Shown here piece by piece: positions 1 to 36,809 of a DNA stretch of 64,000 nucleotides. The notes under the pieces were generated by a model that saw nothing but the letters and a program-made list of their open reading frames with translations, had not been told where the DNA came from and ran no database searches. Position numbers and translations under genes: made by a program. Location: NCBI GenBank assembly GCA_022578605.1, contig MU394145.1, positions 1 through 64,000 of the forward strand, written 5' to 3'. This DNA comes from Camillea tinctor (taxonomy: Eukaryota > Ascomycota > Sordariomycetes > Xylariales > Xylariaceae). Position 1 is the first letter of the stretch. Every line of letters starts with the position of its first letter.

Positions 1-121
1 ATAAATAAAATAAATAAAATAAATAAAATAAATAAAATAAATAAAATAAATAAAATAAATAAAATAAATAAAATAAATAAAATAAATAAAATAAAATAAA
101 ATAAAATAAAATAAAATAAAA
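1..121. repeat. A/T microsatellite at the window edge
   Basis: Ten head-to-tail copies of the 9-mer ATAAATAAA (about 1-90) run into about six copies of the 5-mer ATAAA (91-121). It is the left end of a much longer A+T-only block and probably continues beyond the window. Confidence 0.9.
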
Positions 122-3100
122 TTTATAAAATAAAATTTATAATATTATTAAATATATTTTATATATAATTTATATATATATATTTATTTTTAATTATTAT
201 TAAATTAATATAAAACTTATTTAATTTAAAATTAATATATTTAAAAATTAAAATTAAAAATATTTATTAATTATATATTAATTATAATAAAAAAAAATTT
301 ATATTTTTTTATATTTAAATTTAAAAAACTTAAATATAATTAATAATATAAAATTTTATTTTATTTAAAAATATAAATAAAAATATAAAAATAATTATAA
401 TTATATATAAATTTTATATATATATAAATTATTTTTATTATTAATTTAATATAATAAACATTTTATATATTTAATAATATAATAATTAAAATAAATTAAA
501 AAAATTAACATAATTATATATTACATATTATAATAAATTATAATATATTTTATAATAATTTTATATAAATAATATTTAAAAGTTAAAAAAAAATTAAAAC
601 AACATAAAATTTAAATTAAAATAATATATTATTAATAATATAATTAACGAAAAAAAGCTTTATTACTATATAATTATTATAATAATTATCATTAACGCTT
701 CCCTATTAATAATTTAAACGTAACTTTAAACTAAAATATAAAATATAACAATTTTAATATAAAACAATGTTAGTTAAATATAAAAAAAATAACAATTTAA
801 CCTCAATAAAAATATATATATACTTAATTTATAACTTTACTATAATTACTAAAGCTATTAAAACAAAGTTTCGTTTTTTTAAATTAAGTTTTAAATTTAT
901 GCTAACAATAACTTAACAAAATCTTATATAAGTATAAATAAAACCTTAACTTACAATAAAAATAACGTGGCTATTAGTGTAAATAAAAAAGGTCTTAAGC
1001 AAAAATAAAAGTTTATATTAAGCCATTAAGCTGCAATAAAAATCTTCTTTTTGCGTGTACTTAATAATATAAACAATTTTATATAATAATCGTTATCGTT
1101 AAAGTTAGCTACTATAACTGGCTATTTTTGGCAATAGTTAAGTGTAGAGGTAAACATAATAAGGGCTAAAAAGAGGTTAATAATTAAATTATTTAAATGT
1201 AAAAAAAATTATACTTAAAGTTTAATTGCCGTTTTTATAAGCGCAAAAACAACTTTACTTAACTATTACAAAATAAAATTTTTTAATTATATTTTAAACT
1301 TTATAACTATTAATATAGTTAACTTTATATTTAACGTGGAATTGAAAATAATGTCAGTTTAAAACTATACTTTTAAAAAAAAAATTAATAAACTTATTTA
1401 TATATAAAAAAAGCAAGTTATATACTTACAATAAAAAAGCTTTAAATAAAATTAACTTTCGGTTAAAAAAGTTATTTATATTATACAAAGATTTTACTGC
1501 ATTAAAATAAAGATTAATTAACTTTTAAGTTTTTATAAACACTTTTAAAAAATAAAAGTTTAACATAAAAACAATAATAAGGTTTTTTTTATAAAAAGCA
1601 AAGTTCTTAATTTTATTTAATACTTTTAAATACATTAAAAAATAAATAAGTTAAATAAATTATATAATAACAGTTTATATATAAATTTACTTATTTATAA
1701 TTAAGTTAATAACAATTTAATATTCTTACATAAATTTGCATTATAACAATGCTATTAATTCTTTATAAAAAAAATGGTTTTAATTATAAATGCGTTTAAT
1801 GCCGCATTAATAATAAACCTTATAGCTTATAACGTAACAATAAATATGCTTTTTTTAAAAAAGGCTTATAACATTAAATATATTTGCTAAATACATACTT
1901 AAGCTTAAAAATAATGTTAAAAAAATAAAAAAAATAAAATAAAAACGAAAATTACATACTTACAATTTGTTTTTAATTTATATTAAAAATGTATACTTTA
2001 TACTTTATACCGTAAATATATTACTAACAGTTAAATATAATAAATCAATTGTTAAAAAGTTAAAAAAAGGTTTTAAAAACTTAATAATAAGTTTTTTAAG
2101 TTTTAAAGTTTATATAAACTTTAACAAACATAATAACTATAATAATATAAATAAAAATTAATAATAATATAAATAAAAATTTATAATAAAGTTAATAAAA
2201 GTTAATATATAAACTTTAACAAAGTAAAAATAGCAATATAGCAAAGTAAACTATAATAAAAAAAAAAATAATATAAATATAAACGTTATATTAAATAAAA
2301 ATTAAATAAATAATATATAAACCTACTTACTACAATTAATATAAAAAAATATTATTATAAAAACAATCTTTTTAATGTTAAAATTAGCTATATGCTTAAA
2401 ACTTATATCGACTTAAAAAGTTTACTATTTAATAAATAAACAGATTTATTTTTTATAAAAACAAATAATTATAAAGTTAACATTATTTTAATAAAAATAT
2501 TAAATATATTAAAAATAAAATTAATATAAGTGCTATATAAATATTACATAAAAATTAATAAAAATACTAACTTAGTTAAAATTATACTTATAATTTATGT
2601 AATAATAGTGCTAAATAACATTAATGCTTATCTTTTTAAAGTAATTAAAAGCTTTAAACTTGCAGATAATATAATAAAAGCGGTTTATATTATTAAGTAT
2701 TATATGCATATTACTTAAAGTTTGTTTTTTAAGTAATTAAAAACATAAGCAAAAGTAAAGGTTATTTAATAACTAACTTAAAAAAATATAAGTATAAGTT
2801 TTTTTTTAAATAAAAAAAAACTTACTGCTAATAGCCTAAAAATTATTTACAACCATTATAGCTTAATATACCTAATAAAAATAAATATTAAGTATTTTAA
2901 TAAATACACTAAAGTAATAATAATAAGTACCAATAAAATATAAAATAATATATTAATAATTAAAAAAAGTAAAAAAAAAAAATAGCATAGCACATTTTTT
3001 GCAAACTAAAAACCTTTAACTTTAAAAGTAATTAATATTTAATAACGTTATTAATAATTAAAAATAAGTTTATATAAAGCTTGCAAAAAAAATAAAAAAA

Positions 3101-4940
3101 AGCTAGGGAAATACTGCAATAAATCTTTTTTATGCTTACTAAAAAAATATAAAAGTACTTTTTTTAATATAAAGTACAATTGGCATTGTTAAAATAATCT
3201 TTAATTATTAAGTAAACCCTAGCTTAAAAAAGCTTTAAAGTTTAAAAAAAATGCTACTTTAAAGCATTAAAAAATTAGTTAATATAGTAAACAATAAAAA
3301 CTATATAAATAAAGAATGTTTATATAATAAAGTTAACATTTATTTTATAAGTTAAGTTAAAAAATGTAGTATTATTTATAATAATAATTCTTTTTTTATA
3401 TATTAAATAATAAAAATTAGTTTAGTTAGCATAAAAACAGCTTTATAAAAAACAACGATTAACTACATAAATAAAGCTATAAATATATTAATAAAGTGTT
3501 AATAAATAATAAAATTTTGCTTATACATAAGCTTTCTACTCTAAAAAGTTACTTTTATTTTTAATCAATAAAGACTTAATTTTAATTAAAACTTTATTAT
3601 TTACAACGATAATATCTAACAAACAAAGCTTTAAATTTAACTATTTATAATGCTTTACTCTATTACATTTATATACTATACACATATAAAAAATAAAGTT
3701 AAAAAATAGTACAATAACCTGCTAAAAGCATAAAACTTAAGTTTTTACATATTAAATTTAACATTATATAAGCTTAACACTTATAAAATAAAAATAAAAT
3801 AAACGTATTATAATATGCTTAACTTTAATTTTTTTAAGTAACTTTTTTTAATTGTTAATAATATAAATAGTACTATTAGTTAATATATTTAAAAGCTTAA
3901 AAATAATTTCAATAAACTTCAAATTTTTAATAATTACTTATAAAGTCTACTATATACTTAAAAAAACTAAATATAATAATGCTAACTTCTTTATAACATC
4001 TTTAATTAAATTGCAACTAAAAAGCTATATAAAGTAAATAAATATTTATATTATTATAAAGTAATTTATACTTACAGCAAGCTTTAATTTTTAATTAATT
4101 TAATAATTTAGTATTAAATGTTAAGCTTTAAAGTTATTTTTAAATTCATTTCTTTAAAATTTAAAAAGCTTAAATAATAATAATACATGAAAAATAAAAT
4201 TAAATAAAATAAAAAATAGCAAAACGCCTTTTTAAACACAATTTATACTTAAAATTAAGTTATAATAATGTAAAAAAAAATAAGTAATAAAGTAATATAG
4301 TATTAATTAAAAAATAGTTATAAAAAGTAAATTATAATATAATAAAAAAAAAAAAAGATAAATATAACGTAAAAAAAAATGTAAACCAGTATTAATAATA
4401 ATTTAAAAAAATATAGTGTAAATATCGTTAATAAAAAAAAAAAAACTTATTATTAAAATAAAAAGGTTTTATAAAAATATATACTTTATTATACAGCACC
4501 TTTACCAATGCAACGTTTTTAATATGAATATAAATTATAAAAAACCAACAATAACAATAAACTAATAACAATAAAAACTTAATAACAGTTAACAACTTAA
4601 CAATATAATATTTGTTAGCATATTGCGTTAATATTAACTTAATACTACATAAAAGCTAACTATATTTTATGTAAAAGTTATTAACGCATAAAATGTATAT
4701 TAAATTAATGTTAGTTAAGTGTTATATAAAAGCTGTAATTAGGTTAAAGTTTAGTTTAATAAGTAGTTAATTAGCTTATGCAATCAATAATATAACAATA
4801 ATTAAAGTCATCTTAAACGTTTTTTTTGCTACACCGCTATTAAAAAAAAGTAATTATACAAAGCGTTAATAAGTAGCTACAAAAATTATAAAGTAATAAA
4901 TTACAAAGCGGTAATTACAAAGTAGTGGTGTATTTAGCAC
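122..4940. repeat. Extremely AT-rich, non-coding block (probable RIP-degraded repeat island)
   Basis: Almost all bases are A or T, with stop codons in every frame, scattered GCTT/AAGC words and no open frame worth calling; the few short frames encode only Lys/Asn/Ile/Tyr-rich strings. The composition switches within some tens of bases near 4.93-4.95 kb to ordinary mixed sequence. In filamentous ascomycetes such blocks are typically old transposons mutated by repeat-induced point mutation (C to T), often heterochromatic, and can be centromeric or subtelomeric. That interpretation is inference: no transposon protein or terminal repeat survives that I can recognise. Confidence 0.75.
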
Positions 4941-27343: not shown

Positions 27344-30185
27344 TTATCGAGGAACTGGCGGTAATGACTTGTCTAGGCTTTCACGACTGGGATTATCACG
27401 GTTGAGGCTTTCACGGCTGAGTCTGTGCCGCAACATCCTACCAAAATTTGCGAGGCTTCCACCTTTCTTCTGATCAGGGTAGCTGTTGACCGGCTCCAGA
27501 TAACTAGATTTGGGCGGCGTCGGTGGCCCCCTACCTCCAATTCCGTGAGGTCCCAGCTCAGTGAACCCATCTTGCCGATCGTGAAGTGATGGGGTGTAAG
27601 GGCGTGTCTCGCTTGCGTTGTCGTCACGACCTCGTCCTTCAACGGATGACCCTTCCGCCGCTGTCTCCTCAACTACTGGTAGAACGGCATGCGAGTTATT
27701 TCTTCCGCCAGGGGGGGATATAGTCGTGATAATGCGGCCAGGTACCTGGTCCTCAGTAGCAGCTTTCTTGTCTTTCTTAGCCTTTTTAGAGGCCTTCTCT
27801 ACCGTTGAGTTGGATTCCGGAGTTGTCGGCGGAAGAAAGGTCGATCCATCTTCGGGCTGCAACATTCCCTGCGATTCTGTTGCCGCAGCAGCTGCAGCAG
27901 CTTCTCGATCACGTGCGTCTCTTTCGGCCTCATCCGCAGACATAGTTATCCCTGACATAAATTTGATGAATCGCTCCCCATACTCATCCGGCGGGAGGGC
28001 AGAGATCTGGGAGCGGTCATTGGAAAGGCCTTTCCAGAAGTGCTCTATCTTCTTGATCATGCCGTACTATAAATTCATTAGCATACGATACAGGGCTCAA
28101 TACATCTTCCATGAGCAAAATGGAAATTAAACTCACGTGTGTCAGACAGTCGATAACGCCCAGATAGTAGACTTCTTCGCCGGGCTCATCATCATCGTGA
28201 GTTGCACGGAGACCACCATCGTCATTGTAAAATACGCCACCCCGGCCTTGACCCTCGGCCAATTCGTCCGGCATCCTGTCACTAGTTTGTTCCATCGGTA
28301 TTGGCCGCTCGGCCTTGATCATTTGTCTCAGCTCCCTTGCCTTGCGTGCGCTTTCCAGTTTAGACGGTGTCCTCATGAGGACGGAGCTGGGATCAAAACC
28401 TTCTTCCGACGGCCCAGCACCGCCAGGGTTAAATACCTGGAGTGTCTTGTCCCTCAAGTTTTCCTCGTTCCCTTTGCGTAGATCGTGGATGCCAATCAGA
28501 AGGGAGTAATCCATAATCTTCAACTTCTGCAACAGCCGAACATCACGCTGAAGCTGCTGAAGGAATAGTTGCTTCTTCTGGAGCCCTAGCTCAAGATGCC
28601 TCTGCCGGCGCAGCCAATTCAGGTCCTTCAAGGTAGCTCGTGGATTCTTCTCGAGGTTCTCCTCTTGGTAGTTCCGGCCGACGGTAGAGCCCTTCAGGTC
28701 GAAAGTAGTGTGAATATCACGGTGGGGCGGGAAGAGGTTGTTCATGACAACGAAGTGAATCTTCTTTCCGTACGGCATCTTCACACGATGGAGACCATAG
28801 AATTGGGAGAGGAGGGTGTTCGGGTTATCGGTAACGTGGTTATAGTAATCTTTCAAGATCTTCCGGAGAAACTTATGCTCGGCGTGATGGATCGTCTTAA
28901 TGATGTACTTGTAGTCTCGGGAGAAGTAGAAGAAGCTACCACTCTTCCCCGGAGATCCAAGCTCAGATAGAATATACTTCCCGGTGAGCGACATCAGGTA
29001 GTCGGCCGGATCCAACCTAAAGAGAGCGCGAAGATGCCGGAAAACCCAGGGCGCATAATCCTTGAACTTGAAATCATACTTGGCCGAAGGCACCAGCTCG
29101 TTTCCAGCGCTACATCATGTTAGTAGAAAACCGATGATAGGGGAGAGGGGGGAGGAAACGTACATGTCAAACGTCGATTTCTGCTTAGCGTCGAAGTCTG
29201 CATCGGTCAAGGGACGATCGAGTTTGGCATTGGTACGAGAAACGGATACGCGAATACCCGTCAACATATTGTACGCGGTGGTCCAGTTGGCATGGTTCTC
29301 GTCGACCTTGGTTCCGACCAGGACCCGATCATCATCCTCCTCTTCCCGCTTCTTCTTCTTAGCCCGCTTTTGCCGGTATGCCTCAGCCCACCTAAGCGCA
29401 TCGTCATCGGGGAGAACCTCATCGCGAGGCATGTCGGCGTTCTGCGGTCGCGTGTTTCTCCGACCAAGGCTCAGAGACCCTCGGCGCCCGGTCGGTCCAG
29501 CTGCAGTGGGGGAAAAGCGGCCGCTGGCATATGCTGTGTCATTACTATCCTTGGAACCACGGCCAGCCTGTGCCCTCGGAACCTCCAAGGTATGGCGGTG
29601 CTTCAATCCGGTCGCCGGCGGTTGGGCAGCGGGGTTCGATGTCGAGGCGGCGGCGTTGGCGTTGGCGTTGGCGGAGGAAGTACTGGGCAGATTCGCGGGA
29701 GAAGAAAACCTTTGGGGTTGTGTCGAGTCACCTTGGACGATATCAGGCACAGGAGGCATGGGCTTGGACGAATGGTTGGGCGGTTGACCGTCTGCAGGCG
29801 TGGCGTCAGAAGATGTGTCGCCATTAGGTAGTTTGTAGTTAGATGCGCTGTGATAGGACTGCTGTGCAGGCCAGCGGTAGGTCGAATCCATCTCAGACAT
29901 CACACCATTCGGAGCTCTGCTCAACCTGCCATTTGCCAGGGGGGTCATACTCGAAGGATGTGGCCCGTCCCCATTCATACGCAATCTTGGGTCCGAACTA
30001 TTGGAGGAATGCGAGGACGAGTTGTCGTCGAAGGTCTCATTCGTGGGAGTGATGGCGGCGTGCAGACGGTCCTTACCCTTGGAGAGCTTGTCAAATGCAA
30101 GATCGTGGTGACTATCGTCGAGGTGGACTATGCCAGCGTTCGAGGAATAGATGGGAGAGTTCTCGTTGTTTACGAAGGAGGGCAT
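27344..30185 (-). CDS. MSS4: Phosphatidylinositol-4-phosphate 5-kinase
   Basis: Makes PI(4,5)P2 from PI4P at the plasma membrane, controlling actin, polarity and signalling. Exons (minus strand) are 30185-29164, 29109-28137 and 28066-27344, giving 905 aa. The junctions restore STFDIAGNELVPSAKYDF and GVIDCLTHYGMIKKIEHFWKG. Residues 1-270 are Ser/Pro/Asn-rich and disordered. The PIPK catalytic core runs from about 325 to 690, with FDLKGSTVGR (about 477-486), MDYSLLIGIHD (about 540-550), the usual low-complexity insert, then YYLGVIDCLT. The C-terminal 200 residues are disordered with Lys- and Ser-rich stretches and an RLSRESLNRDNPSRESLDKS repeat. Both introns are short (54 and 70 nt) GT-AG. Identification is firm. 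Confidence 0.95.
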
Positions 30186-31681
30186 TATTTCGCTATTCGG
30201 AGTTCATTCGTGGCCAATTCCCGACACTTTGGCACTTTGGTTCTGGTTGATATTTTTCTTGGGTTTCTCTTTTTTTGGCTGACTCTGGGTTCTGGGCTCA
30301 GACTCAGATTCAGCTTCCTCCGCCTCTCCTGTTGCTGACTCCTGAATTAGAGAAGAAGAAAAATACGTTATGTTCTTTTTTTTCTTTTCTTTTTCTCTCT
30401 CTCCCTCTGTTATTCACTTGGGTCGGAAACAGATACAAGATTGTCGAGGGGAAACAATAATCGTGTTTGCTGCAATCGACCCGAAGAGAAGGGGAGGCAG
30501 GGAGGAAATGAAAATACGAAAATAGGAGATTGAGATTTGTAGAAGAGAAAGTTGGTAACGGGGGGAATGAAATGCGTGGATACGCTAAAAAAAATAAAAG
30601 ATACCAGTAAACTCTCGAACCAATAACGTATTGTTATTTGCATAAAACAGGTACAAGGATTTTTTTTGTACAACAAATACGGAGTTGGTAGAACGGGTAT
30701 AGCTTTAGAACGGATAGAACGGGGAAAGCAAACGAAGGGGGGAAAAGAACATGTAAAGTAACTAAGTACCTACCTTAACACTAGCGTAGGTTAGCAATAA
30801 GTAGCTCTCTAAACAAGTACCTATCTAACCCTCTATTCCCCTTTCTTCTTTTTTATTTCATTTCTCTCCCTTTTTTTTTTCTTGGCGACAACGACTAGTC
30901 AGTTGGTATTGTAAAATATCGAATGAATGTAATTGAATTAGAAGAAGAAGAAAAAAAAAGAAGGAAACACGGAATTATCTGGATAAGGAAAAGAGAGAGA
31001 GGGAGAGAAAATAACCCAAAACCCAAAAACAAAAGGGATGGAAAAGAATAGAATGGAAATTTGTTTTTAATGGTGTTGAAGAGTTGGGCATGCACCTAGG
31101 TTAGGTGGGTTGAAGAGGACAATTATTGTTATTATTGTTTTATTTATCGGGGTTGCTTTAAGATTTCAAATTACTACGATTTCAAAACTTGAATAAGCAA
31201 AAACGAGTTGAAAGGTTCAGTTCCATTTTAGCTACTCTCACTAATTAGTGGATCAAATACGCTGCACTGCATACTGCATAGAGAAGGACTGCGAGGCCTA
31301 CTTATCTCAGCTATCTGATGTACGACCAATAAATAACGACCCGTCCTGCAAAAAGATCACACGCGTACCAGAGACAACAGAGAACTGTTATTTTTCAACT
31401 TTTTTCAAGATACTATAATACTCCGTAACCACTCCGATAACTACCTGCCCATTTGTCGCTAGCTATCTCTTGGGGTTGTTTCGTCCCCAGTATGCGACCT
31501 GGTCTACCTTACGTAATTTACGGAATTACTTTGCTAGCATAGCGTGCATCGGTATATCGGAGACAATACATCAGCGTGGCGCAGTCTTAAAAAAATAAAG
31601 GAGAAAGGACAAGAGAAAATTGAATGTCCACTGCATTAGCGATTGGTGAGCTGCAACAAGAAAAATATAAAAATAGATGGT
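30186..31681. other. MSS4 promoter and intergenic DNA; no protein gene seen
   Basis: The MSS4 leader includes CT-rich tracts (30380-30420) and A/G tracts (30940-31060). ACTCCGTA-type words occur near 31421. No supported coding frame. The tRNA gene begins immediately to the right, in the same orientation as MSS4. Confidence 0.5.
31661..31673 (-). terminator. Pol III terminator of the tRNA-Met gene
   Basis: On the minus strand TTTTT (31673-31669) lies eight bases after the discriminator A, and a second TTTTT follows at 31665-31661. This is the expected spacing for RNA polymerase III termination and indicates that the displaced 3' end belongs to a tRNA transcription unit. Confidence 0.75.
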
Positions 31682-31852
31682 TGTCCTGGGTGAGGCTGAT
31701 TATTTGTTAGTTTTAGGTATATATTCCAGAGTAGGTATGTGTTGAACGCCTATGGCTACTTACCTCGAACTCACGACCTTTGGATAGCCCAATCTGAGAA
31801 TTGAGTCATTTTCATATGAGACCAACGCTCTAGCCAACTGAGCCACCAAGAC
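31682..31852 (-). tRNA. tRNA-Met(CAU), elongator type, with two introns
   Basis: Mature parts on the minus strand are 31852-31815, 31785-31764 and 31695-31682. Acceptor stem GTCTTGG pairs with CCAGGAC (one G-U), D-arm is GCTC/GAGC, anticodon loop is CTCATAA with anticodon CAT at 31818-31816, T-stem GTGAG/CTCAC, T-loop TTCGAGC, discriminator A. The T-T mismatch closing the anticodon loop also occurs in the yeast elongator tRNA-Met. A 29-nt intron (31814-31786) sits one base 3' of the anticodon, the canonical tRNA-intron site. A second, 68-nt insertion (31763-31696) splits the T-loop and therefore the B box; without removing it there is no T-arm or acceptor stem. A T5 Pol III terminator follows. 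Whether the gene is functional depends on how that insertion is handled. Confidence 0.85.
31696..31763 (-). other. Spliceosomal-type intron inside the tRNA-Met T-loop
   Basis: A 68-nt segment starting GTAAGT and ending AATAATCAG, with a CTAAC branch site (31710-31706) whose branch A lies 11 nt before the acceptor end. Length, donor, branch and spacing equal those of ordinary mRNA introns in this window, for example the first NoxA intron with GGCTAACATAG. Exact GT-to-AG removal gives a 7-nt T-loop and closes all tRNA stems. It interrupts the internal B box promoter after TTCGAG. Confidence 0.75.
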
Positions 31853-33600
31853 AATCTGTGATGGAGGAACGAGGGTTGTTTTTGCTTGTCATAAAGGAAT
31901 TTGCCGTGTTCACGATAGTTCCCTGCTTGCTTGCATTGGCGTAAGTAAGGTATATGCTACTAGAATATTCCTAAAAGGTAACTAACCTAGCATCGATCTC
32001 TCTGTAAGTAGAATGCGTGCCGTTTCGCCGACACCACTTACATGGAAATATAAACTAGCGACCACACTAGTAGCTAATTAAGTTAGTCCCCTGAATTCAT
32101 CGGTTCAATGTTCACTCAGACCGTAATGTAACTGTATATCATGTCAGTCCGTTTTTATGCTCCGTCTGTCGTGCATAAAATTGTTAACTCAAAGTCCGAC
32201 AGGCCGTGCTCCAGGTACATCCGCTTACAAAAAAAGCTCCCAAAAAGCTTGGCTACATCTCCAAATAGATGGTACCGCAACTCCATGCTTTTAGCGACTT
32301 TATGATTGCTTACCACTTTTCATCACCTTATAACCAAGCCACAATCTGATATTTGATTCATCACCTTTCCCATTATCTCTTTATATGAATTCCAGGTTCA
32401 TGACTTAAGGTATTAATTTATACTCACACTTACACTACGGGCTGAAGGGATGTTCAAGTCCACGTCAACAGTGTAAGAGAAGAATTACAAGAGACGAGTT
32501 GTAAAACCTACCTGAACTTACCTGTGTAATGCTAATGCTAATTTCGGGGATGTTCGTACTTCTTCATGCACGCTGTCATACACAGTTTACCTAACTGTCC
32601 GTCCTTGGCTCCGTTACAGGTCGTAAAACATGCCATGCCGTCTTTGCCGTCACCAGCCACAGATTCCCCCCCAAAACCATCCATTAACAACGATCCCTTG
32701 GCAAACGCAGGTAAATCTTGGTCCCCTAATCTTTTTCACTTGTTGTTTTTCAGCTTGTCAAGGGGTTGCCGAAGGACTCCACGAGTACATACATACACTA
32801 GATGCGACCCAAAACCATCGTCTAGATGGCCCGGCCTAGCCCCTCTCGTTTTCTCCCTCTATGTATGTACCGTCATCCCTTTTATGTATTATGAGGTCAC
32901 AGCAACCAACTATCTGTAGTGCAGTATTACCTGTCTCCTCTCAAGATTGACGACATAACCATATTAGCCATTACACTATGTGGTTGTGATCGTCTACTAC
33001 TCTAACAACAATGCAAAGTTACTTCGTCCACCTGCCCTACATATGCTGTGTTGGCCGGAAATCTCAATGAATGAACAGCCCACCGTTCCTCGCCCCCCTC
33101 CTTCTCCTCTCCCCATTATTAGGAGCACTGACGTGTCGCGTTTAGTCTCCTCTTTTCGTCAGAATAAAGGGTATAACGCCATCATAGAGCGAGACACACA
33201 TAAAGTGAGAATGAGAAGGGAAAACTCAAAATTGAACGCGAACGTAACTATGAAGATCTAATGTAGCGTTGGTAGCTACTAATGAGTAAAGTAATGTTAA
33301 GTACAGGTTAACCGGAGTGGCTGTGCCGACTCACTAGAAAACTCGCGAGATTGCTATGGATCCCAACTGCATCACTATGTTAATGCAGGCGGGAAAGACG
33401 GCGTGCTCGGGGGTAAATTGGAATACATATTCTTTATCACAACGACATCCATCGTTTCTTAAAGTCCTAGCTACTGCTATTTATTTATACGTATTGTGAT
33501 CGTGATTAGCTTCAACTACATGGGATGAAAGAAGGATCGGATCTATCCGCTCTGTCTTCTCGAACACTAGTGTAAAGGGGGTGGAATAGAATGAATACTA
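31853..33600. other. Intergenic; no gene seen
   Basis: Upstream of the tRNA gene. Contains scattered short frames with no family resemblance. The 32566-32919 and 32980-33261 frames on the plus strand are compositionally ordinary and unsupported. Confidence 0.45.
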
Positions 33601-33914
33601 CGGAGGTCCCTACCAAAAAACGTTGCCACCCCCCCTTGTCCACCTGAAGTCTTGCCGTTTTTGCAACAGGTGTCGCACAGCTGTTCGACAGGTGTAAGAT
33701 ATAGCCAAACTAAAGCCGCTGTATATGGTGCTGTCTCCATAATAATAACGCGCTAAAAAACTTTATCGATAATAGCTGTTACTAGCTATAAGCACTAAAA
33801 ATTATAGTGAGCTGCTGTTGGCAGCCGTATACAGCTGTGTGGCACCTGTCGCAAAAACGCCAAGACTTCAGGTGGACAAGGGGGGGTGGCAACGTTTTTT
33901 GGTAGGGACCTCCG
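33601..33914. mobile_element. 314-bp MITE with about 85-bp terminal inverted repeats and TA target duplication
   Basis: The ends are CGGAGGTCCCTACC... and its reverse complement, flanked by TA on both sides (33599-33600 and 33915-33916). The inverted repeats (33601-33686 and 33829-33914) are identical for the first 54 bases, including a run of seven C, and then differ at only about four positions over the next 30. The interior is A/T-rich with no open frame. TA duplication and long inverted repeats suggest a non-autonomous Tc1/mariner- or pogo-type element; the superfamily is inference. The near-identity of the arms suggests recent activity. Confidence 0.85.
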
Positions 33915-36809
33915 TACAATATACTTTCCAGGCGCTCATCTAAAAAATAAAAATAAAAACCGCATATACAGTCCCCCCTAGGGCTACCTAGTGGTAGCTT
34001 TGCCGCTCAGCCCACCCGCCCTGTAGATCTGTTTAACCTTAGTGAATTTACCTCATATCAATTCCCCCCCAGGTAACCGTTCGGGAAGCGGAGGGTAAAG
34101 CATGCGGCCCCGAGTTCCCACGGAGCTGGTCCCCGGTAGCCCAGCACGGGTGGGAGAGCAAATAGCGCCCGTACATACAAGCCATACATGAGCTCTCTAT
34201 GGTCTCGACTTAGATTGCCCCCTAGCCACGAGGGCATGCTACAGCTCATTCGCAATACCACCCTTTATGGCTCACACAAGGGAAGAAAATAAAAGTTTAA
34301 AAAAAAATTTACTACTCTCCCAAAAATCAGATTCGGTATCCACTGGCCACGCGAGAAACCCTGATCTCCACGCCCGATGAAAGGAAGCGTGGAAGCCTTC
34401 CATGGGGCTTCTTTCATGACTCTCTAGCGCGACGAGCAATGATGCGGGAATCGCAGATCGAGATAGAAACGCAATAAGCAGAAGTGGCCCACGAAGCTCC
34501 TTGGTTATTTCGTTTCAGCGCCGTTGTGATAAACGGCTATTCTCGCGCCTCCACAACCATATAGGTTTACCTACCTTCATAGTATCCGGGCGGCGTGAAG
34601 CAATTAGGATGGCATTAGGCGTTATCACACCTGCAGGCTATGTTCGCAAGGCCGAATTCTATTGCGTCTGGAAGCTGGTGTCGCTCGGGGCGTTCTACTA
34701 CTCGGCGTGGCTTGGACTAATGTAAGTATGTAAGTGCCTAATCTTGGGTACACAGCAGCAGTCCAGCCCGCTACAGGGTGACATTCTCTTAGCCGTGAGG
34801 CCTCCCCGTAGGCCATCCTGTGGTAGAATAAAGTGGCTCATGTCACTCACTATACCTTTGCTTCTTTTTCAGATAGCCTTTCCCCAAGCCAATAGCCCTC
34901 GCGTATAATACAATACTTAACTAATAGTCAGGACATCAGTTCTTTTTATGAGACGGATATTAGAGTGGCAGTGCCGCCGGCATCAGGACAAACTAGATTT
35001 CATAAGTGCATTTTTTGTCTCTTCCCTATAATATCTGTAAATGAGGCTGAATACATTTCTATTCATCCTACATGGATGTATCGGGTGAATAGCGCAACCA
35101 AGGAGAGTTGCACGTATCTAAACCGTTTTTTCTTAGTAGAACTATGATACTGGTCAAACGTAGTAAAAATAAGCATTTCCTACTTAGAACAATGAGCGTT
35201 ATAGAAGAAGGAAAAACCACATGGCTATGTTAATAAAATTTCATGTATCTAGGAGAGAAAGTGACGTGTTCAGATAAAGTTGATTATTTTTTCTTCTTCT
35301 CTTTCTAACTAGATCACCAATACCAAGTCGATAACCAAACTCCCTAAAAACTAGTATGTATATCGAATCTCCTAGATATAATTGTAGAAACGACTCGCCC
35401 TCGTGTTAAATGTAAGATATTCTATTTACTAGCCATGTTGTCATTTCAATTTGTATATATAGCAATCAGTTTTAGGAAGTGTAATAAAATATACAATTAA
35501 GTCGGAAGGACGAGTAGTAAAAGAAAGAGAAGGATGAGCTAGATATCAAATTATTTACTTTAACATGTAAATGCCAATTTAATATTGATATGAAAACGGA
35601 ATAATATCCTAGTATCTCTAAGACCAACGAATTGCTAGTATGCTTCGAGGACAAGTTAACAACACTAGAAGGCATATAGGACTTACCATGTATTCTATAT
35701 TGACAAAGGTAAATCAACTACACCTAGAAAAGATTATACAAAAGCGTATTGCCGACACAAGGACTGACACATGATATTTGAGAATAGGGGAGGGGATAGG
35801 AATATACAAATTTGCAGACAGCAAAATGGACACTATACATAAGTTAGGACCTTCAACTGGTCACGGATTCTTACACAGCTCTATCGAAAATCACTACCAA
35901 CGTCCTATTGAAGGACATTCAAAATGCCAAGTGCATACTAAGTAGTTCTAAGTTACCCCGTCAACCCGCGTATATCGGCAACCTCGTTCTCGTTTTCGGG
36001 CTCGGGATTTGCTATTCCCGTCTCGCTCCCGGCTCAATAAAATACTACTTAGCGAGGAGTAGCCTACACCAATAAGCTATTTGGTGTGCATAACTAGCTT
36101 TCCAGTAGAATACGAGATATACGAGATCAAGACCGTGGTGTCTAGACAGACACATTGCATCTCCACTTGTGAGTCTTAGGAGAGGGGGGTTTTCCCTACA
36201 AGACGTAGCATATAGATTTTTCTCTTATTGATATGGGGCAAGCAAGAACTTGGTTATATATCACGTGTTGGAATAACGCATTGCTATTTACTAGATGGTC
36301 TCTGAGATATAAGACCCGGGACTATGTAAGCTACGAGTATGCTAGGCGCGATGCTCCCCGTAAGGTTAATAGGTATTGACGGTTTCTTTCCCTCTACTAA
36401 ACAGTCGGCAACAGCAACGTAGAGCAGCTTATCGATTGAAAATCGAGTAGTGTAGATTCGTCAATGCCAACTAATAAGCCACATATCTAACCAACTAGGA
36501 AGTATACATATCTCTTCCCCTTATACCCCAACCAGTATATATATATATGCGTTCAGAATAAGACATCAAAAACTGTCTCCTGAAAATATTTATAAACATA
36601 GGCGAGCATCTTAGCTGCGTCTAAGAGATGACCTTAAAAAGAGCAGAGTTCTACCTATCCCCCCCTTTTTCCTTCATGTGCCCCCCCTTTTTTTATCACC
36701 CCTTCTTTCTGCTATCCAGAACTCCATTTCATAATATATTTTTAATCCATATTATCGTACAGCCCCCTCACACAGCTCTTACTCTCCCCCATAGTCTAGT
36801 TCTCGAATA
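33915..36809. other. Intergenic; no gene seen
   Basis: Nearly 2.9 kb without a supported gene. A somewhat GC-richer patch (33970-34830) has short frames on both strands; one (34501-34725) ends LVSLGAFYYSAWLGLM before a GTAAGT, but I cannot connect it to anything. The patch may be a degraded repeat. The rest is A/T-rich. Confidence 0.4.

What the first reader, a model, noticed from the sequence alone, without database searches (positions are those of the whole stretch)
31682..31852. tRNA-Met gene interrupted in the T-loop by a canonical spliceosomal-type intron
On the minus strand a tRNA-Met(CAU) gene has its usual 29-nt intron after the anticodon plus a 68-nt insertion (31763-31696) within the T-loop. 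The insertion begins GTAAGT, has CTAAC with its A 11 nt before the end, and ends CAG. Removing exactly GT...AG gives T-loop TTCGAGC, T-stem GTGAG/CTCAC and acceptor stem GTCTTGG/CCAGGAC; a T5 terminator follows. All three splicing signals plus perfect restoration are hard to get by chance. Nuclear tRNA introns are normally removed by the tRNA splicing endonuclease at 37/38, and I know of no spliceosomal intron in a nuclear tRNA. The nearest precedent is the mRNA-type intron in the Pol III-made U6 snRNA gene of fission yeast. It also splits the B box. Possible readings: a spliceosome-processed Pol III transcript, a Pol II host transcript, an introner-like insertion into a tRNA gene, or a recent pseudogene.
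Basis: partly seen in the sequence, partly recalled or inferred. Interest (0 to 1): 0.92.

Follow-up and report, generated by a model that had tools for sequence, protein, structure and literature searches.

The report
Spliceosomal introns inside fungal tRNA genes
A fungus carries a tRNA-Met gene, and at least three tRNA-Lys genes, interrupted by short introns of the kind found in messenger RNAs, which suggests that some of its tRNAs are finished by the messenger-RNA splicing machine.

Summary
On the minus strand, 31852-31682 is an elongator tRNA-Met(CAU) gene with a 29-nt anticodon-loop intron and a 68-nt GTAAGT...CTAAC...CAG insertion (31763-31696) in the T-loop. The same genome (44.7 Mb, a Xylariales-like ascomycete) has two elongator tRNA-Met paralogs without the insertion; removing exactly GT..AG restores their T-arm. 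The copy's exons differ from theirs by a compensated acceptor pair (C6-G67 to G6-C67) and one D-loop base.

It is not alone. Three tRNA-Lys(CUU) genes at other loci are interrupted in the T-stem (52/53) by 61-66-nt GT...AG insertions with branch-point-like motifs. Removing them gives 74/74, 74/74 and 73/74 identity to four uninterrupted tRNA-Lys(CUU) genes, while the introns have diverged almost beyond recognition. The only U6 gene found over the cut-off also carries a 60-nt intron of this type, so this fungus very probably splices a Pol III transcript. No strict bulge-helix-bulge motif fits the junctions.

Best reading: functional tRNA genes with spliceosomal introns. No RNA evidence exists here. 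The Met copy is weaker than the Lys copies: its B box is damaged, and intact copies exist. I found no report of spliceosomal introns in nuclear tRNA genes in the searches I could run.

The parts
31682..31852 (-). elongator tRNA-Met(CAU) gene with two intervening sequences
   Evidence: paralogs L002 and L003
31815..31852 (-). exon 1, acceptor 5' strand to base 37, anticodon CAT
31834..31845 (-). A box (TGGCTCAGTTGG)
   Evidence: sequence; position by the usual tRNA numbering (recalled)
31786..31814 (-). 29-nt conventional anticodon-loop (37/38) intron; 28 nt in the paralogs
   Evidence: exact register is mine, ARAGORN shifts it by two bases
31764..31785 (-). exon 2, base 38 to base 59, with B-box core GTTCGA at 31770-31765
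31696..31763 (-). 68-nt spliceosomal-type intron in the T-loop (59/60), GTAAGT...CTAAC...CAG
   Evidence: absent from both paralogs
31739..31747 (-). B-box-like GTTCAACAC inside the intron; weak
   Evidence: (consensus match in 0.145% of shuffles) against (2.1 bits by a B-box weight matrix; 12.6% of 68-mers reach it)
31706..31710 (-). branch-point motif CTAAC, A at 31707, 11 nt before the last intron base
31682..31695 (-). exon 3, base 60 to discriminator A73
31661..31673 (-). two T5 runs, likely Pol III terminator
   Evidence: sequence

Best explanation
The 68 nt are a spliceosomal (U2-type) intron in a Pol III tRNA gene. The window gene is one of at least four tRNA genes in this fungus, of two isotypes (elongator Met(CAU), T-loop 59/60; Lys(CUU), T-stem 52/53), whose T-arm is restored only when a GT..AG intron is removed. 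Proposed order: Pol III transcribes the whole gene to the T-run; the spliceosome removes the T-arm intron, as it must in this fungus's U6 precursor if that is its only U6 gene; in tRNA-Met the splicing endonuclease also removes the 37/38 intron; end processing then gives an ordinary tRNA. Shown here: sequence anatomy, exact restoration, absence from paralogs, unchanged Lys exons beside diverged introns, an intron-bearing U6. Inferred: transcription by Pol III, splicing, its timing, and use of the tRNA in translation.
For: Exact 5' splice site, branch site and 3' splice site, expectation about 2.6e-7. Removal gives an ARAGORN tRNA-Met. Exon differences to the paralogs are 3 of 74, two of them a compensated acceptor pair (P 0.010 for three random changes). 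Three of the 7 tRNA-Lys(CUU) genes found carry T-arm introns of 61, 63 and 66 nt with GTAAGT/GTGAGT/GTTAGT, TTAAC/CTGAC/CTAAC and TAG/TAG/CAG; spliced, they are 74/74, 73/74 and 74/74 identical to the 4 uninterrupted genes, while the introns are barely more alike than shuffles (P 0.003, 0.02, 0.16). Diverged introns that keep all three signals between unchanged exons are the mark of spliced introns. A trailer hairpin is kept by compensatory changes across the 7 Lys genes (5 of 7 pairs; 0 of 500 shuffles reach the covariation score). U6, the only match over the cut-off of four listed, has a 60-nt GTAAGT..CTAAC..CAG intron with the same 11-nt branch distance as the Met intron. None of the 5 introns holds TTTT. 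No strict BHB fits any of the 4 junction pairs.
Against: No RNA data. Uninterrupted genes of both isotypes exist (2 Met, 4 Lys), so the interrupted ones need not be used. In the Met copy the insertion replaces B-box bases 60-62, and the score drops from 12.4 to 0.2 bits against 7.5-18.3 for 33 distinct B boxes; the intronic substitute scores only 2.1 bits, reached by 890 of 7052 window 68-mers and 4 of 37 candidate mRNA introns. Exon versus anticodon-intron divergence is not significant (3 of 74 against 3 of 28 to L002, P 0.34; against 4 of 28 to L003, P 0.088). The compensated pair may predate the insertion. Gene conversion among tRNA copies could keep Lys exons alike without function. One of the five trailer measures, further pair types, is unremarkable (84 of 500 shuffles), and I drew that hairpin from these same sequences. 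Lack of TTTT in 5 of 5 is unremarkable (P 0.14). No relative's locus could be compared.
Confidence: 0.75

Rival explanations
1. The window copy is a dispensable or decaying tRNA gene: an intron landed in it, transcription is weakened because the B box is broken, and the two intact paralogs supply the cell. Splicing may or may not happen and does not matter.
For: Two uninterrupted paralogs. B-box score falls to 0.2 bits. A review says that short insertions in D or T arms mostly occur in one of many synonymous genes and are supposed pseudogenes (PMC4090602, section 5 read).
Against: Only 3 exon changes, two of them compensatory. Splice signals are intact. It does not account for three Lys genes with diverged introns and unchanged exons.
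Confidence: 0.13
2. The intron is removed only from a Pol II transcript that runs through the gene, for example a long leader of the downstream minus-strand MSS4-like gene (ORF start at 30185); the tRNA itself is not made.
For: Same strand as the MSS4-like ORF, 1.5 kb upstream of it; the stretch from 30185 to 36779 holds no ORF of 150 aa or more other than overlaps at its ends.
Against: T5 runs follow directly. It explains neither the compensated pair nor three unrelated Lys loci with the same architecture.
Confidence: 0.06
3. The T-arm insertions are cut out by the tRNA splicing endonuclease, as proposed for non-canonical introns of red algae and nucleomorphs.
For: Such introns in T arms are reported in nucleomorphs, and similar non-canonical introns in Cyanidioschyzon (PMC4090602 section 5).
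Against: No strict bulge-helix-bulge at the junctions of any of the 4 genes, though that scan also missed the conventional anticodon intron of tRNA-Met, which eukaryotic enzymes are thought to find by a ruler. GT..AG and branch motifs would be unexplained. The introns are 61-68 nt, against 3-24 nt in the Guillardia nucleomorph.
Confidence: 0.03
4. Chance or artefact: a random insertion or misassembly that looks like an intron.
For: None beyond the lack of reads to check the assembly.
Against: Expectation 2.6e-7 for this gene and 2.5e-5 to 1.0e-4 per locus by a looser rule for lengths 61-68; four loci on four contigs.
Confidence: 0.02

Closest known systems
mRNA-type introns in U6 snRNA genes (fission yeast and other fungi)
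   Same: Short GT..AG intron with branch point in a Pol III gene that encodes a structured RNA; found in this same genome's U6 gene.
   Different: The host here is tRNA, whose nuclear introns are otherwise handled by the tRNA endonuclease and ligase; the intron breaks the T-arm and, in tRNA-Met, coexists with a conventional intron.
mRNA-type introns in fungal U3 snoRNA genes
   Same: Spliceosomal intron in a small structured RNA. A survey calls U3 and U6 the only small structured RNAs known to be often interrupted by an intron (PMC5832005, passages).
   Different: Different RNA class.
Spliceosomal introns in fungal nuclear rDNA
   Same: mRNA-type intron in a non-coding RNA not made by Pol II (one 18S rDNA title seen in the reference list of PMC11782384; wider occurrence is recalled).
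   Different: Pol I host.
Canonical eukaryotic tRNA introns at 37/38
   Same: Intron in a nuclear tRNA gene; the window gene has one too.
   Different: Position, length, GT..AG and branch signals.
Non-canonical T-arm tRNA introns of nucleomorphs, and the like in Cyanidioschyzon
   Same: T-arm position in a nuclear-type tRNA gene.
   Different: Those of Cyanidioschyzon are linked to BHB motifs and the tRNA endonuclease; those of Guillardia are 3-24 nt and how they are spliced is called unknown (PMC4090602, section 5).

Membership tests
Spliceosomal (U2-type) intron | GT..AG ends with an extended 5' splice site | tested here: met
   GTAAGT..CAG in Met; GTGAGT, GTAAGT, GTTAGT with TAG, TAG, CAG in the three Lys genes
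Spliceosomal (U2-type) intron | Branch-point motif at a usual distance | tested here: met
   CTAAC, A 11 nt before the last base, same as U6; 13-15 nt in the Lys introns; middle half of 37 candidate mRNA introns 12-17 nt (decoy scans gave 8-15 hits, and the candidates were pre-filtered for such motifs)
Spliceosomal (U2-type) intron | Length within the host's introns | tested here: met
   61-68 nt against 5th-95th percentile 54-116 and quartiles 65-100 in the 37 candidates, part of which are false, and 60 nt in U6
Spliceosomal (U2-type) intron | Removed by the spliceosome | not testable with these tools
   no RNA data
Pol III gene with mRNA-type intron (U6 type) | Host transcribed by Pol III | tested here: inconclusive
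   A box and T-runs present; B box intact in the three Lys genes but 105-110 nt from the A box against 52 in one normal gene, L026; B box damaged in the Met gene
Functional nuclear tRNA gene | Spliced product folds as a tRNA with a plausible anticodon | tested here: met
   ARAGORN calls on spliced Met and on the three spliced Lys genes
Functional nuclear tRNA gene | Exons under constraint after the insertion: Lys genes | tested here: met
   0, 0 and 1 of 74 changes beside diverged introns; gene conversion not excluded
Functional nuclear tRNA gene | Exons under constraint after the insertion: Met gene | tested here: inconclusive
   Compensated pair, P 0.010, but its timing relative to the insertion is unknown; exon against anticodon-intron divergence not significant
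Canonical or BHB tRNA intron (tRNA endonuclease) | Position 37/38, or BHB at the junctions | tested here: not met
   59/60 and 52/53; no strict BHB within 2 nt at any of 4 junction pairs
Introner-like element | Several similar copies in the genome | tested here: not met
   68-nt query finds only itself; the L060 gene query finds only Lys genes. The search skips simple repeats and very common words

The most novel reading that the evidence does not exclude
Nuclear tRNA genes of a fungal lineage hold long-standing spliceosomal introns, so part of its tRNA-Lys(CUU) and elongator tRNA-Met supply is matured by the spliceosome: a second, parallel route of nuclear tRNA splicing that couples tRNA supply to splicing capacity.
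Probability: 0.6. Interest if true: 0.95.

Novelty: new variant of a known kind. Interest (0 to 1): 0.91.

Why it matters
Introns in nuclear tRNA genes are taught as one kind, at 37/38, removed by a dedicated endonuclease and ligase; mRNA introns as another, removed by the spliceosome from Pol II transcripts. A tRNA gene with both kinds crosses that line. If confirmed, it shows that Pol III tRNA precursors can enter the spliceosome, that ordinary tRNA finders miss such genes (ARAGORN found none of the four; the Rfam tRNA model missed the Met gene), and that intron gain can be watched in a host without a reading frame. It also makes a simple question testable: can a tRNA precursor be spliced by the spliceosome before it folds or leaves the nucleus?

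Tried and rejected
Replacement B box in the intron: first looked striking (GTTCAACAC fits GTTCRANNC, 0.145% of shuffles; 0 of 37 candidate mRNA introns; the U6 intron has one too), but a weight matrix from this genome's own tRNAs gives only 2.1 bits, common by chance; kept as weak. Common origin of U6 and Met introns: alignment P 0.075 and 0.04, no claim. L046 and L107 introns against U6 gave P 0.02 each among ten comparisons, as good as two of the three Lys-Lys comparisons, so common descent of the Lys introns is not proved either. Introner: no second copy. BHB: none. Other Pol III genes: 26 matches to 5S rRNA, 25 over the cut-off and each of these 120 nt long; one SRP RNA of 278 nt and one RNase P RNA of 322 nt, neither read. 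Other isotypes: DNA queries of this genome's tRNAs gave 43 and 22 matches, judged by match ends only, with no clear further T-arm interruption; three Val loci seemed cut at the T-arm, one was read and is intact, two were not read. The tRNA search of the genome (63 matches, 62 over the cut-off) is a lower bound and several isotypes are absent from it, so more interrupted genes may exist. De novo finding of mRNA introns was poor; one search gave 37 candidates with 8-15 in decoy scans. Candidates were pre-filtered for GT[AG] donors, CTRAY branch motifs and YAG ends, so their splice-site counts are not an unbiased sample. In the first tRNA alignment 6 of 25 rows were misaligned and dropped before the second, to which L003 was added. 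Passages of four further papers (PMC6461891, PMC4494063, PMC3978253, PMC8393795) held no spliceosomal intron in a tRNA gene.

Full report
What is there. Minus strand 31852-31682 holds an elongator tRNA-Met(CAU) gene with two intervening sequences. The first, 31814-31786, is the usual anticodon-loop intron. The second, 31763-31696, is 68 nt long, begins GTAAGT, has CTAAC with the A 11 nt before the last base, and ends CAG. It sits between T-loop bases 59 and 60. ARAGORN sees no tRNA in the window, nor in the unspliced gene with introns allowed, and a proper tRNA-Met(cat) once the 68 nt are out. Rfam's tRNA model finds nothing in the window at its gathering score, and the gene is not among the 63 matches to that model in the genome.

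Paralogs. The genome that holds the window (44,688,122 bases, 154 contigs) has two further copies, L002 and L003, with 28-nt anticodon introns and no T-loop insertion. Taking out exactly GT..AG gives the paralogs' T-arm; the AG on both sides makes three placements equivalent. Exon differences between the window copy and each paralog are three of 74: C6 to G and G67 to C, which restore each other as a pair, and one D-loop base. Three random changes would include a compensated pair in 1.0% of cases. Whether this change came before or after the insertion is unknown. Anticodon-intron differences are 3 of 28 to L002 and 4 of 28 to L003, indel included; the contrast with exons is not significant (P 0.34 and 0.088).

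Not alone. Reading the Rfam alignments of weak or odd tRNA loci (7 loci) showed three tRNA-Lys(CUU) genes with an interrupted T-arm: L046 (contig C60), L060/L107 (C18) and L062/L108 (C66). Each reads ...GGTTGCGG, then GT...AG, then GTTCGACCCCCGC..., so the break lies in the T-stem at 52/53 (numbering is mine). The inserts are 63, 61 and 66 nt with GTGAGT/CTGAC/TAG, GTAAGT/TTAAC/TAG and GTTAGT/CTAAC/CAG. A DNA search finds seven Lys(CUU) genes: these three, without an anticodon intron, and four with an 8-nt anticodon intron and a whole T-arm. Spliced, L107 and L108 equal the four normal genes in 74 of 74 bases and L046 in 73. The introns are nearly unrelated to each other (interior alignment against shuffles: L046-L107 P 0.02, L046-L108 P 0.16, L107-L108 P 0.003), which fits one old insertion, gene duplication and long divergence, with exons and splice signals held; but L046 and L107 are as much like the U6 intron (P 0.02 each), so descent from one insertion is not proved. 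By trailer sequence the three are not one group: L107 is 87% like three of the four normal copies, 55% like the fourth (L028), and 55-61% like the other two interrupted ones, while L046 and L108 are 87% alike. So the intron may be old and lost from some copies, or may have been gained more than once at this site.

A precedent in the same cell. The only U6 match over the cut-off in the genome (four listed) has a 60-nt intron, GTAAGT...CTAAC...CAG, between GAGAAGAU and UAGCAUGG, with the same 11-nt branch distance, and with a B box inside it. If this is the sole U6 gene, the spliceosome of this fungus must handle a Pol III transcript. Introns in fungal U6 genes are known; the survey by Canzler and colleagues is cited by papers of which I saw passages (PMC5832005; PMC7827515; PMC9518982) but is itself not held.

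Transcription. In the Lys genes the B box GGTTCGACCCC is whole, 105-110 nt from the A box instead of 52 as in L026. In the Met gene the core GTTCGA stays but bases 60-62 change, and the score falls from 12.4 to 0.2 bits. The intron offers GTTCAACAC, but the evidence for it is mixed. None of the five introns contains TTTT, which would be expected to stop Pol III; with TTTT in 12 of 37 candidate mRNA introns that has P 0.14. T-runs follow all four tRNA genes.

Trailers. Each of the seven Lys genes is followed by a hairpin that I drew from these sequences; 95.9% of 49 cells pair, 5 of 7 pairs change on both sides, and 0 of 500 shuffles reach the covariation score, while the number of further pair types is unremarkable (84 of 500). 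The interrupted genes take part in this, which argues that they are kept.

Other ways of removal. A scan for strict bulge-helix-bulge motifs finds none at the four T-arm junction pairs. That scan also missed the conventional anticodon intron of tRNA-Met, so it speaks only against the archaeal type of recognition.

Organism. The window's GH5 protein is 91% identical to one of Biscogniauxia marginata and next closest to other Xylariales, so the source is a Xylariales-like ascomycete; I did not name it further. No relative's DNA was reachable (one search says the genome has no relatives held).

Novelty. Ten searches of the held library (listings seen, few papers opened) gave no report of spliceosomal introns in nuclear tRNA genes that I could see; four exact phrases gave 0 papers. 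A 2014 review describes 37/38 introns, non-canonical introns of nucleomorphs and a red alga, permuted genes, and supposed pseudogenes with arm insertions (PMC4090602, section 5); the string spliceosom does not occur in it. A 2017 survey calls U3 and U6 the only small structured RNAs known to be often interrupted by introns (PMC5832005, passages). The library lacks most subscription papers, so absence is not proof. I file the find as a new variant of a known kind: an mRNA-type intron in a Pol III gene, in a new class of host RNA.

Verdict. The sequence claim is sound. The class claim (functional tRNA genes with spliceosomal introns) rests mainly on the Lys genes and U6; the Met gene is a likely but weaker member. 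RNA evidence is missing and would settle it.

Noticed in passing
L070:1501-1660 (contig C10): The only U6 snRNA match over the cut-off has a 60-nt mRNA-type intron that also contains a good B box (GTTCGAATC, 12.7 bits).
   Followed up: yes
L026, L027, L028, L029, L046, L107, L108, downstream of tRNA-Lys(CUU): The seven tRNA-Lys(CUU) genes found share a trailer (AATTCCCGATGC...) with a hairpin kept by compensatory changes in 5 of 7 pairs, followed by T-runs; perhaps a longer Pol III transcript with its own function.
   Followed up: partly
L055, L058, L059, L064 and perhaps L061, L063 (contigs C3, C44, C147, C101, C140, C109): Similar tRNA-like sequences with an odd anticodon arm, several on small contigs; perhaps a tRNA-derived SINE or pseudogene family.
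   Followed up: no
window 1-4000: Stretch of 11-14% G+C beside a normal region, as in RIP-mutated repeat islands of filamentous fungi (recalled).
   Followed up: no
window 27344-30185, minus strand: MSS4-like PIP5-kinase gene in several exons (named by recall from its sequence), 1.5 kb downstream of the tRNA gene on the same strand.
   Followed up: partly
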